NCBI RefSeq assembly: GCF_000337735.1 | Contig: NZ_AOHX01000046.1 | Location: 4,124-68,123 of the forward strand | Length of the DNA: 64,000 nucleotides | Reading direction: 5' to 3' | From: Natronorubrum sulfidifaciens JCM 14089 | GTDB lineage: Archaea > Halobacteriota > Halobacteria > Halobacteriales > Natrialbaceae | In this document: positions 26,565 through 29,748 of the stretch, piece by piece | Layout: every line of letters starts with the position of its first letter | Position numbering within the stretch: position 1 is the stretch's first letter | Notes under the pieces: generated by a model | Databases searched by the model: none | What the model saw: only the letters and a program-made list of their open reading frames with translations | What the model was told of the DNA's origin: nothing | Program-made: the position numbers and the translations under genes

Positions 26565-27803
26565 TCATTCGGACGATGCGCCGTCCTCGAGGACGGCCAA
26601 TCGAGAGTCACGCAGGAGGACTTTCTTGACAATCGATGGATTCTCGAGCAGGCGGTGTTTGGCGTGGGCACCGCGGCCACGTCCGCGGCCCTCGCGTTCG
26701 GACTGGATCACGTTGAGGAAGTTCTGTTCCTGAAGGATCTCTTGGACACGACGCTCCGAGAGGACATCGAAGTCGAGTCGACGGGCGACTTCCTTGTACT
26801 GGTTGTAGATGATCTTCGTCGGGAACTCCTTTTCCGTGCTGTTCTCGGTCAGTAGCGTCAGCGAGTAGAGGATCGCTTTCGCCTGCTGGGGAGAACCCTC
26901 AATCAACTCGTTGAACCGGTCGGCCTCGGTCTTCTCTTTGGCGTCGCGGACGTGGTCGGCGGTGACCTGCGTGTCGTTTCGTTTCTTCGCGATACGACCC
27001 GCGTTTCGAAGGATGTCGATCGCCTTGCGCGCGTCGCCGTGTTCTTGTGCGGCAAGCGCAGCGGTCAATGGAATCACGTCATCGGAGAGGACGTCGGTGT
27101 GGAACGCATCTCGTCGTTTCTCCAAGATTTCGACGAGTTGGTTGGCGTCGTACGGCGAGAAGACGAGTTCGTCCCGCGAGAGACTCGATTTGACCCGTTC
27201 GGAGAGGTGGTCCGGGAAATCGATCTTGTTCGAGATGCCGATGATGCCGATACTCGAGTCCGAGATCCGTCGGTTCTCGCCGGCACGGGAGAGCTTTCGG
27301 AGGACTTCGTCGTCCTCGAGCATATCGATCTCGTCTAAGATGACGATGGTGACGTCGGTGCAGTGGTCGACGGCCTGCCAGAGGCGTTTGTAGTAGTCGC
27401 CGGTGCCAAGCCCGCGGTCGGGCACGGTCACGCCGCTTTTCTCGGAGTCGTTGACGAGCTGGGCGATCGTCTTCACGATCGACGCTTCGGTGTTCTGTTC
27501 GCCACAGTCGATGAAGGCGTATTTGACGGTGACGTCGTCGCGTCGGGCTTCCGAGATCACTCGCTGGGTGACCGACCGGGAGATGAGCGATTTGCCGGTG
27601 CCAGTCTTGCCGAAGATGAACAGGTGGTTGGGTTCGCTCCCGAAAATCGCGGGGTTCAGCGCATCCGCCACCCGTTGCATTTGCTCGTCGCGCCCGACGA
27701 TCCGGTCCGGACCGGGGAGATGTGTGATCTCGAGCAAGCGCTCGTCGGCAAAGACCGGATCGTCGTACCGAAAGAGTGGATCACGATCGTCGTTGGCGGA
27801 CAT
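26565..27803 (-). CDS. orc1: Orc1/Cdc6-family replication initiator
   Basis: A 412-residue AAA+ initiator that binds ORB repeats and loads MCM. Walker A FGKTGTGKSLISRSV is near residue 60, Walker B VTIVILDEIDML near 160, and sensor 1 IIGISNKIDFPDHL follows. A C-terminal winged helix lies after about residue 320 (YNQYKEVARRLDFDVLSERRVQEIL). The start at 27803 is preferred; 41 upstream codons are AT-rich leader. It faces away from the adjacent candidate origin (27804-28974), the usual arrangement. Numbering among haloarchaeal paralogues is uncertain. Confidence 0.95.
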   Translation of the reverse strand: MSANDDRDPLFRYDDPVFADERLLEITHLPGPDRIVGRDEQMQRVADALNPAIFGSEPNHLFIFGKTGTGKSLISRSVTQRVISEARRDDVTVKYAFIDCGEQNTEASIVKTIAQLVNDSEKSGVTVPDRGLGTGDYYKRLWQAVDHCTDVTIVILDEIDMLEDDEVLRKLSRAGENRRISDSSIGIIGISNKIDFPDHLSERVKSSLSRDELVFSPYDANQLVEILEKRRDAFHTDVLSDDVIPLTAALAAQEHGDARKAIDILRNAGRIAKKRNDTQVTADHVRDAKEKTEADRFNELIEGSPQQAKAILYSLTLLTENSTEKEFPTKIIYNQYKEVARRLDFDVLSERRVQEILQEQNFLNVIQSEREGRGRGRGAHAKHRLLENPSIVKKVLLRDSRLAVLEDGASSE

Positions 27804-28084
27804 TGCGTTACCCCGTGGCTTCCAACTGAATTGAAATAAAGGTATGGAGATCGATCGCGGATGTAAACATCGCGTGATAGGCGACGATGAACCTGATTTT
27901 ACCAGATGCGCAATGAAACCACTCAACGGCGGTCTCGCGTTTCTAACGATCGGCCCGCCGACTGACTCCTGACACGGGTTCCGGACAGTGCCACGATGAA
28001 TTTCGATCGGGTCCCCCAGCGTGGATTTCGATCGGGTACCGACTCGAGTGACGAGTGGTTACTCCCTCGAGTGTGTGAACCACC

Positions 28085-28196: not shown

Positions 28197-28290
28197 CCAG
28201 AGACGGCTCGAAGAGTTTTCGGGGAAGGACCTCCGGAGACGCTCGATTTGCCGGGGACTCGAGGTCGGGGGCAGTCGTTGGAGGGGGGAC

Positions 28291-28312
28291 ACACCCCCCT
28301 CGCGTTTGTAAC
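28291..28312 (-). repeat. ORB-like origin recognition element 2
   Basis: Minus strand reads GTTACAAACGCGAGGGGGGT then GT. It differs by only one base in the core from element 4 (28435-28458), and the two are inverted relative to each other. Confidence 0.75.
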
Positions 28313-28381
28313 GGCAAATGGGTGGGGTGGGTGTTCGGTTATTCCCGAATTCGTGTCGAATCAGGGCTCAAAAGCGAGATT

Positions 28382-28403
28382 TTACATCCGCGGATGAGGT
28401 GTG
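28382..28403 (+). repeat. degenerate ORB-like element 3
   Basis: Reads TTACATCCGCGGATGAGGTG then TG on the plus strand. It has the TTACATCCGCG core of element 1 but an interrupted G-run, so binding may be weaker. Confidence 0.45.
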
Positions 28404-28434
28404 TTCCACGTAGAGACCCCCCCACTGTTGTGGC

Positions 28435-28458
28435 GTTACAAACGCGAAGGGGGTGTGT
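28435..28458 (+). repeat. ORB-like origin recognition element 4
   Basis: Reads GTTACAAACGCGAAGGGGGT then GTGT. With element 2 it forms a divergent inverted pair about 120 bases apart. Confidence 0.75.
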
Positions 28459-28622
28459 GTCCCCTTCGACAGCGATCGACGGGAACTCGACAGGGTTTCG
28501 ACAGCATTCAAAGCGGAAGATCCCAGTGCCGAAAACGGAGGACTCGCCTCGAGACCGTCGAAAACCGAACGCTCAGCAGCATCACAGTTGATCGAATCCC
28601 CACCGAAACGCCACGGTTTCTC

Positions 28623-28749
28623 CTAGAATGTCTCCAAAGACGACCCGTTCTAGGTTCAGTACTAGAACTAGTTCTATCTACTACTAGCTAGTACTAGGCT
28701 AGTAAGTGTATAGCTAGTAACTTTCTATCTAGTGGTAGAGAACAGCTAG
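28623..28749. repeat. CTAG cluster next to the origin
   Basis: Eleven CTAG tetranucleotides begin at 28623, 28650, 28662, 28668, 28684, 28688, 28694, 28699, 28714, 28729 and 28746. The block includes perfect palindromes TAGAACTAGTTCTA (28663-28676), ACTAGCTAGT (28683-28692) and CTAGTACTAG (28688-28697). Local AT content is high. CTAG is otherwise scarce in this window. Confidence 0.9.
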
Positions 28750-28974: not shown

Positions 28975-29748
28975 ATGACTCCCAACTCTCCCACATCCAA
29001 CCGTTCGACGGATCTGTCACGGACACCGCCGTCGGTCGCCATCGTCGACGCTCAGACGCCGGGCAACGTCGGCACGATCGCCCGGGCGATGAAGAACTTC
29101 GGATTCGACGACCTCCTGTTGGTCGACCCACCAGCACTCGATCCCGACGGTGATGCCTACGGCTTTGCCGGGCATGCTCGAGATGATATCCTCCCGAACG
29201 CAACGGAACTCTCGTTCGACCAGCTCGTCGAGAACTATCACACGGTCGGCTGTACGGCGGTGACCAACGAAGACGACCACAGTCACGTTCGGTTTCCGTA
29301 CTCGACGCCGGCCGAACTGGTCGATCGGTTGGCGACCGTCGAGGCACCCACGGCACTCGTCTTCGGCCGCGAACGCATCGGGCTCACCAACGAAGAACTC
29401 GCTCGAATCGACGAGATTTGTTCGATTCCGGCCGCTGCAGAGTACCCCGTCCTCAACCTCGGACAGGCTGCGACGATTACCCTTTATGAACTGCAGTCGC
29501 TCACCCTCACAGCTGACGAGACCCAACTGCCGGACATCGAGCGCGTTCGAGCCCCTGAACCGACCATCGACCGCGTCTACGACCAGTGGGCCGACCTGCT
29601 CGAGGAACTCAACCATCCCGAGGAGAAACGCGCGAAGACGATGCGCATGCTCCGGCGTGTCTACGGGCGGGCGGATCTGACGACGGGCGAGGCGAACACA
29701 CTGTTGGGACTCCTGCGTCGGGCGACGGAACGGCCGGCAGAGGACTGA
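28975..29748 (+). CDS. trmJ: tRNA 2'-O-methyltransferase, TrmJ type (SPOUT)
   Basis: A 257-residue SPOUT-class methyltransferase, probably methylating ribose at tRNA position 32. SPOUT motifs are present in order: VDAQTPGNVGTIARAMKNFG near residue 22, ALVFGRERIGLTNEE near 125, and the knot-forming IPAAAEYPVLNLGQAATI near 150. A C-terminal helical extension (about residues 180-257) is typical of TrmJ dimers. It starts on the far side of the origin region and is transcribed away from it. Confidence 0.9.
   Translation: MTPNSPTSNRSTDLSRTPPSVAIVDAQTPGNVGTIARAMKNFGFDDLLLVDPPALDPDGDAYGFAGHARDDILPNATELSFDQLVENYHTVGCTAVTNEDDHSHVRFPYSTPAELVDRLATVEAPTALVFGRERIGLTNEELARIDEICSIPAAAEYPVLNLGQAATITLYELQSLTLTADETQLPDIERVRAPEPTIDRVYDQWADLLEELNHPEEKRAKTMRMLRRVYGRADLTTGEANTLLGLLRRATERPAED

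What the first reader, a model, noticed from the sequence alone, without database searches (positions are those of the whole stretch)
28623..28749. Eleven CTAG sites in about 130 bp beside the origin
CTAG is strongly avoided in haloarchaeal chromosomes, and many haloarchaea carry a conserved orphan CTAG methyltransferase (Zim type). Eleven sites, several nested in perfect palindromes, next to an origin recall the GATC clusters of E. coli oriC. A methylation-dependent timing or sequestration signal for initiation is a testable idea. Alternatively the block is an unusual unwinding element.
Basis: partly seen in the sequence, partly recalled or inferred. Interest (0 to 1): 0.78.

Follow-up and report, generated by a model that had tools for sequence, protein, structure and literature searches.

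The report
CTAG-packed replication origin element in haloarchaea
Next to a replication origin of a salt-loving archaeon (Natronorubrum) lies a short, easily melted stretch packed with the otherwise avoided DNA word CTAG, the target of a methylating enzyme in the same genome; relatives keep such stretches at several origins, so methylation may help decide when DNA copying starts, an idea already published in outline but never tested.

Summary
Observation confirmed: 11 of the window's 27 CTAG sites lie in 127 bp (28623-28749), between an orc1/cdc6 gene with its origin recognition boxes (ORBs) and trmJ. It is neither chance nor local: in an independent collection, 41 of 44 origins with a close orc1 carry at least 3 CTAG per 130 bp there (background 0.26 per kb), nearly always in the easiest-melting segment. 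The sequence turns over fast; CTAG stays. The block follows orc1, not trmJ. The genome's only other CTAG triplet also precedes an orc gene. At the family's universal oriC1, CTAG sites sit between the inverted ORBs at five conserved, helically phased positions (0, 20, 42, 52, 83 bp), mostly as TTACTAGA. The genome encodes the conserved orphan CTAG methyltransferase. CTAG clusters at haloarchaeal orc1 genes were published in 2016 with the same hypothesis, so this is a member of a known kind, with new anatomical detail. A methylation-sensitive origin element is my best explanation, but unproven. Halorubrum, which mostly lacks the enzyme, has CTAG-poor oriC1, which fits; enzyme-bearing Halorubrum are equally CTAG-poor, and some enzyme-free ones keep a cluster at a secondary origin, which does not.

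The parts
28623..28749 (.). CTAG block: 11 CTAG sites in 127 bp, 60% A+T, weakest-duplex 60-bp segment within 1.1 kb of orc1
26565..27803 (-). orc1/cdc6 origin initiator gene (412 aa, ATG at 27803)
   Evidence: TIGR02928 E=1e-122, Cdc6_lid, Cdc6_C
27857..27866 (+). ORB-type repeat core GCGGATGTAA
28086..28106 (+). ORB with G-string (ACACCCCCGTCGCGGATGTAA), arm of inverted pair I2
28277..28330 (+). ORB with G-string (CACACCCCCCTCGCGTTTGTAACG), left arm of 54-nt inverted pair I1
28331..28416 (.). stretch between the inner inverted ORBs (moderately A+T-rich), the position of the classical unwinding region
   Evidence: layout as in Haloarcula hispanica oriC1 (PMC3936714)
28382..28402 (-). ORB, right arm of inverted pair I2 (TTACATCCGCGGATGAGGTGT)
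28417..28470 (-). ORB with G-string (CGTTACAAACGCGAAGGGGGTGTGTG), right arm of inverted pair I1
28975..29748 (+). trmJ/SpoU-type RNA methyltransferase gene flanking the block; not part of the element
   Evidence: TIGR00050 and PF00588; cluster stays with orc1 where trmJ is elsewhere

Best explanation
The block is a conserved cis-element of an orc1/cdc6-adjacent replication origin: an easily melted segment flanking the ORB array into which CTAG sites have been selectively packed. SHOWN by comparison: conserved presence, position relative to orc1, low duplex stability, CTAG as the retained word, independence from trmJ, recurrence at other origins of the same genome, and five helically phased CTAG positions between the ORBs of the family's oriC1. 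INFERRED: (1) the sites are N4-methylated by the orphan methyltransferase encoded elsewhere in the genome; (2) replication makes them hemimethylated all at once; (3) the methylation state changes either binding of an origin protein to the CTAG boxes or the ease of opening the duplex, and so affects when the origin can fire again. It would work like GATC sites in the E. coli oriC unwinding region with Dam and SeqA, using a different word, a different chemical mark and an unknown reader.
For: Cluster at the orthologous place in every Natronorubrum checked and nearly all relatives with a close orc1; 41/44 loci in an independent collection, 39 coinciding with the weakest 60-mer. CTAG is the most enriched tetramer of all (131 seen, 42 expected; TTAA 3 seen, 18 expected). 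Cluster stays with orc1 when trmJ is elsewhere (G033). Own genome's only other triplet is upstream of another orc. In 20 fully listed relatives, 18 of 45 clusters (18 of 36 without IS-like copies) lie within 2 kb of an orc gene. Universal oriC1: 3-9 CTAG between the inverted ORBs in 27/27 family genomes with a recognised ORB pair, five phased columns each CTAG in 21-25 of 27. CTAG methyltransferase present: 50.3% identical over 327 aa to the pFZ1 enzyme next to an MjaI-family endonuclease, orthologues in nearly all relatives. CTAG m4C was measured in another family member, Natrinema pallidum (PMC12160562). Halorubrum oriC1 has equal A+T but almost no CTAG.
Against: No methylation or replication data for this organism. 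The nine methyltransferase-bearing Halorubrum genomes also have CTAG-poor oriC1, so the contrast amounts to one lineage. At least five methyltransferase-free Halorubrum genomes (G061, G063, G064, G073, G075) carry a CTAG cluster upstream of an orc, probably on secondary replicons. G022 keeps an A+T-rich, CTAG-free segment at the window-type origin although it has the enzyme. Deletion of the Haloferax enzyme gave no growth defect, though its origins are dispensable. In G021 and G025 the block lies beyond trmJ, 1.4-1.8 kb from orc1.
Confidence: 0.5

Rival explanations
1. The CTAG sites are the core of binding boxes (TTACTAGA-like at oriC1) for an origin protein such as Orc1/Cdc6 or another factor that helps open the duplex; methylation is incidental.
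For: Directional TTACTAGA consensus and spacing in multiples of 10.4 bp at oriC1 (mean phase coherence 0.82 against 0.40 for random placement); CTAG clusters persist at a secondary orc in genomes without the methyltransferase.
Against: In the window-type block the flanks and spacings are loose (no 10-bp phase), so only CTAG itself is shared between the two origin types; Halorubrum has the same orc1 and ORBs with almost no CTAG. The phase test does not correct for shared ancestry.
Confidence: 0.32
2. The block is only an A+T-rich unwinding element; CTAG is a by-product of weak stacking.
For: It is the weakest 60-bp segment near orc1 in nearly all relatives; G022 has a TATA-rich, CTAG-free segment at the same place.
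Against: CTAG is 3-fold above dinucleotide expectation while TTAA is depleted; Halorubrum oriC1 is as A+T-rich without CTAG; CTAG columns carry 1.66 bits against 0.73 for neighbours at oriC1. CTAG packing itself adds weak TA steps, so part of the coincidence is built in.
Confidence: 0.09
3. The block regulates transcription of trmJ or orc1.
For: CTAG is enriched upstream of transcription starts in a Haloferax strain (PMC11001535); another CTAG palindrome precedes isocitrate-lyase-like genes.
Against: The cluster stays with the origin when trmJ is elsewhere or on the wrong side and lies 600-940 bp from orc1, beyond the ORBs.
Confidence: 0.06
4. The block is a local escape from CTAG avoidance, for instance foreign DNA or an insertion-sequence target, with no function.
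For: CTAG is commoner on plasmids and is a target of some insertion sequences (remarks in PMC6471742).
Against: Orthologous position in dozens of species and several genera with turning-over sequence.
Confidence: 0.03

Closest known systems
CTAG clusters at haloarchaeal orc1/cdc6 genes with the orphan CTAG methyltransferase (Blow et al. 2016, PMC4752239 Fig. 6D; HG1 in PMC10609329; cHG U in PMC6471742)
   Same: CTAG cluster in non-coding DNA upstream of orc1/cdc6, conserved at orthologous places, in a genome with the orphan methyltransferase; role in replication proposed there.
   Different: Those texts describe density near the genes; I did not find in them the placement in the weakest segment or between the inverted ORBs, the five phased TTACTAGA positions, or the turnover of the window-type block (figures were not available to me).
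E. coli oriC GATC sites with Dam and SeqA
   Same: Dense short palindromic methylation targets in and beside the unwinding region of an origin; candidate once-per-cycle signal.
   Different: CTAG instead of GATC, N4-methylcytosine instead of N6-methyladenine, unrelated initiator, no reader protein known; CTAG is avoided elsewhere, whereas GATC is common.
TTAA (Arthrobacter) and CTCGAG (Nocardia) origin clusters with orphan methyltransferases (Blow et al. 2016)
   Same: Same kind of motif cluster at an origin, paired with an orphan enzyme.
   Different: Bacterial dnaA origins, other motifs.
Haloarchaeal oriC1 with inverted ORBs and A+T-rich core (Haloarcula hispanica, PMC3936714)
   Same: Inverted G-string ORBs beside orc1/cdc6; at the universal oriC1 the CTAG boxes lie in the inter-ORB core.
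   Different: At the window's origin the CTAG block is about 150 bp outside the outermost ORB rather than between ORBs.

Membership tests
Haloarchaeal orc1/cdc6-adjacent CTAG cluster with orphan CTAG methyltransferase | cluster of CTAG in non-coding DNA next to orc1/cdc6 | tested here: met
Haloarchaeal orc1/cdc6-adjacent CTAG cluster with orphan CTAG methyltransferase | conserved at the orthologous place in several organisms | tested here: met
   41 of 44 named loci, plus Natronorubrum and family genomes
Haloarchaeal orc1/cdc6-adjacent CTAG cluster with orphan CTAG methyltransferase | genome encodes the orphan CTAG N4-cytosine methyltransferase | tested here: met
   358 aa N6_N4_Mtase at G000:C47:32099-33172, 50% identical to the pFZ1 CTAG enzyme; specificity by homology only
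Haloarchaeal orc1/cdc6-adjacent CTAG cluster with orphan CTAG methyltransferase | clusters occur where the enzyme occurs | tested here: inconclusive
   Holds between the window's family and the Halorubrum-like genus, fails within that genus and at its secondary origins
Haloarchaeal orc1/cdc6-adjacent CTAG cluster with orphan CTAG methyltransferase | sites methylated in vivo | not testable with these tools
   no methylome for this genome
Haloarchaeal ORB-type replication origin | inverted ORBs with G-strings beside orc1/cdc6 | tested here: met
   five ORB cores, 54-nt inverted pair
Haloarchaeal ORB-type replication origin | autonomous replication or marker-frequency peak | not testable with these tools
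   needs experiment
Duplex unwinding element | lowest duplex stability of the origin region | tested here: met
   weakest 60-mer at about 28669-28728
Duplex unwinding element | lies between the inverted ORBs | tested here: not met
   outside the ORBs in the window; met for CTAG boxes at the universal oriC1. Hence not filed as a classical inter-ORB unwinding element
Dam/SeqA-type sequestration | GATC sites methylated by Dam at N6 of adenine | tested here: not met
   sites are CTAG; GATC not enriched in the block region (41 seen, 39 expected)
Dam/SeqA-type sequestration | reader protein that binds hemimethylated sites | not tested
   no homology search for SeqA or another reader was made

The most novel reading that the evidence does not exclude
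Haloarchaea use a methylation-read origin switch: CTAG boxes in the unwinding segments of several origins of one cell (helically phased TTACTAGA boxes at oriC1, dense irregular CTAG blocks at others) are marked by the orphan N4-cytosine methyltransferase and read by an unknown protein, an archaeal counterpart of Dam/SeqA with independent parts.
Probability: 0.35. Interest if true: 0.88.

Novelty: new member of a known kind. Interest (0 to 1): 0.6.

Why it matters
The role of the nearly universal CTAG methylation in haloarchaea is described as an open question in the literature (PMC6471742, PMC10609329). This work points to exact sites: a compact block in the window and five phased boxes at oriC1. 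Point mutations there, compared with methyltransferase deletion, would decide whether archaeal origin firing is controlled by DNA methylation, which to my knowledge has not been shown in any archaeon.

Tried and rejected
Chance: rejected by shuffles and by background density. Regulation of trmJ: rejected because the cluster stays with the origin when trmJ is elsewhere. RNA element: no Rfam match. Sigma-70-like promoter or terminator: none found, though the scan does not fit archaea. Cruciform: single-strand folding not better than shuffles (z -1.2). Helical phasing in the window-type block itself: none. A clean within-genus test of methyltransferase dependence: tried in the Halorubrum-like genus (9 with, 44 without the enzyme); inconclusive because both groups have CTAG-poor oriC1. 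NCBIfam has no specific model for this enzyme above cut-off.

Full report
OBSERVATION. The window holds 27 CTAG sites, 11 of them between 28623 and 28749. Dinucleotide shuffles of the window expect about 87 in all, so CTAG is strongly avoided outside the block. Shuffles of the block itself give 0.47 sites and never more than 4. In the whole genome (3.46 Mb, 63 contigs) three closely spaced CTAGs occur at two places only, this block and one other. The other place is about 260 bp upstream of a second orc1/cdc6 gene.

SURROUNDINGS. To the left lies an orc1/cdc6 gene (26565-27803, minus strand; TIGR02928 E=1e-122) and five ORB-type repeats with haloarchaeal G-strings, arranged as inverted pairs between 27857 and 28470. 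To the right lies trmJ (28975-29748). The block starts about 150 bp beyond the last inverted-repeat arm. It has 60% A+T in a 62% G+C window and is the segment with the weakest nearest-neighbour stacking within 1.1 kb of orc1.

WHICH ORGANISM. Named relatives show that the window is from Natronorubrum: same-genus genomes in the search share contig lengths with N. bangense, N. halalkaliphilum, N. texcoconense and N. thiooxidans.

CONSERVATION. Anchored on the orc1 start, all ten Natronorubrum genomes checked and most family genomes with a close orc1 have a CTAG cluster, typically 600-940 bp upstream of orc1 and beyond the ORBs. In an independent, named collection (which overlaps in species with the first) 41 of 44 loci with an orc1 of at least 88% identity have 3 or more CTAG within 130 bp, median 5; background in the same loci is 0.26 per kb. 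The sequences around the CTAGs differ strongly between species; the CTAGs recur. Over 22 genomes CTAG is the most enriched tetramer of the region (131 against 42 expected), GATC is not enriched, and TTAA is depleted. When trmJ is elsewhere in the genome (G033) the cluster stays with orc1; in G030 extra DNA separates it from trmJ; in G020, G021 and G025 it lies 1.4-1.8 kb from orc1, in G021 and G025 on the far side of trmJ. So the element belongs to the origin, not to trmJ, and its distance from the ORBs is usually but not always kept.

OTHER ORIGINS. I fetched CTAG clusters found in relatives and looked for orc genes nearby. In 20 genomes with complete listings, 18 of 45 clusters, or 18 of 36 once insertion-sequence-like copies are set aside, lie within 2 kb of an orc gene (my tally); by area about 1% would be expected, given 10-20 such genes in 4 Mb (inference). 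At the universal oriC1, the origin of the long Orc1 found in all haloarchaea, CTAG sites lie precisely between the inverted ORBs CCCCCACCCCTTCGTTTC / GAAACGAAGGGGTGGGGG. All 27 family genomes in which the ORB pair was recognised have 3-9 CTAG there, the window's genome having 4. Aligned, five positions are CTAG in 21-25 of 27 genomes, or 16-19 of 21 taking one genome per genus. Their spacing is 0, 20, 42, 52 and 83 bp, multiples of about 10.4 bp; phase coherence is 0.82 against 0.40 for random placement, a test that does not correct for ancestry. Most boxes share a direction, TTACTAGA. CTAG columns carry 1.66 bits on average, other columns of the segment 0.73. The window-type block shows no such phasing. 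What the two origin types share is CTAG and A+T-rich flanks.

THE METHYLTRANSFERASE. The genome encodes a 358-aa N4/N6 methyltransferase (G000:C47:32099-33172) with SPPY before FWGTG, the subtype-beta order described for the CTAG enzyme of Haloferax (PMC5867850). It is 50.3% identical over 327 aa to the methyltransferase of plasmid pFZ1, which sits beside an MjaI-family endonuclease gene; that this is M.MthZI, a characterised CTAG enzyme, rests on PMC5867850 and my own knowledge of pFZ1. Orthologues occur in nearly all relatives. CTAG m4C has been measured in another family member, Natrinema pallidum (PMC12160562).

TEST OF METHYLATION DEPENDENCE. One genus (probably Halorubrum, judged from its patchy enzyme and PMC6471742) has the enzyme in 9 of 53 genomes. 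Its oriC1 keeps the ORBs and an equally A+T-rich core but has almost no CTAG: 0 in most, at most 2. This fits a link with the enzyme at the lineage level. But genomes of that genus with the enzyme are equally CTAG-poor, and several without any homologue (G061, G063, G064, G073, G075) carry CTAG clusters 280-690 bp upstream of an orc, apparently on secondary replicons. In the other direction, G022 has the enzyme but a TATA-rich, CTAG-free segment at the window-type origin. So the association is real at large scale but not strict.

HOW IT MOST LIKELY WORKS. The block is a melting-prone part of the origin loaded with sites for the methyltransferase. After a fork passes, all sites become hemimethylated together. 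A reader protein, or a change in duplex stability, could then delay or permit the next opening. None of these steps is shown. The main rival is that CTAG boxes are read by an origin protein regardless of methylation; the phased, directional boxes at oriC1 favour some protein contact, with or without methylation.

WHAT IS KNOWN. Blow et al. 2016 (PMC4752239) reported CTAG clusters at orc1/cdc6 starts in Haloarchaea that go with the orphan methyltransferase and proposed a role in replication (the text prints the motif as CATG, the figure legend as CTAG). A 2023 survey repeats this and calls the function unknown (PMC10609329). Ouellette et al. 2018 found high CTAG density only near oriC2 of Haloferax volcanii and no growth defect after deleting the enzyme (PMC5867850), in a species that can live without origins. 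The placement in the weakest segment, the phased boxes and the within-genus Halorubrum comparison are additions I did not find in the texts searched.

LIMITS. No methylation or replication data exist here for this organism. Genomes are related, so counts are not independent events. Weak stacking and CTAG density are partly the same measurement, since CTAG contains a TA step. No search for a reader protein was made.

Noticed in passing
L172:3011-3035 (G025:C1:1314810-1314834) and L175:3014-3038 (G034:C1:3489313-3489337): A CTAG-bearing palindrome, CTAGAnTTGTACTAGnACAATCTAG, lies about 400 bp upstream of an isocitrate-lyase-like gene in two different genera; a possible conserved operator.
   Followed up: partly
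G021 and G025, joined contig ends (L108+L097; L069+L098): trmJ lies between the ORB array and the CTAG block, which puts the block 1.4-1.8 kb from orc1, yet the block is kept.
   Followed up: partly
L121, L122, L125, L130, L137, L138 and L196-L199 (Halorubrum-like genomes): A short CTAG cluster (such as CTAGTTCTAGCTACTAGCTAG) 280-304 bp upstream of an orc gene, shared by genomes with and without the CTAG methyltransferase, apparently on secondary replicons.
   Followed up: partly
G019 (six places, e.g. C1:583610-583631) and G023 (three places): Repeated near-identical CTAGTAAGTTCTAGGGTYCTAG copies scattered over two genomes, probably part of an insertion sequence.
   Followed up: no
window 27997-28040: Direct repeat TGAATTTCGATCGGGTCCC, two copies 25 bp apart, between the first two ORBs of the origin.
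   Followed up: no
L294 (G000:C31), universal oriC1 of the window's genome: A second very A+T-rich segment about 90 bp beyond the right ORB, without CTAG, is the weakest segment of that origin region; the CTAG boxes are between the ORBs.
   Followed up: partly
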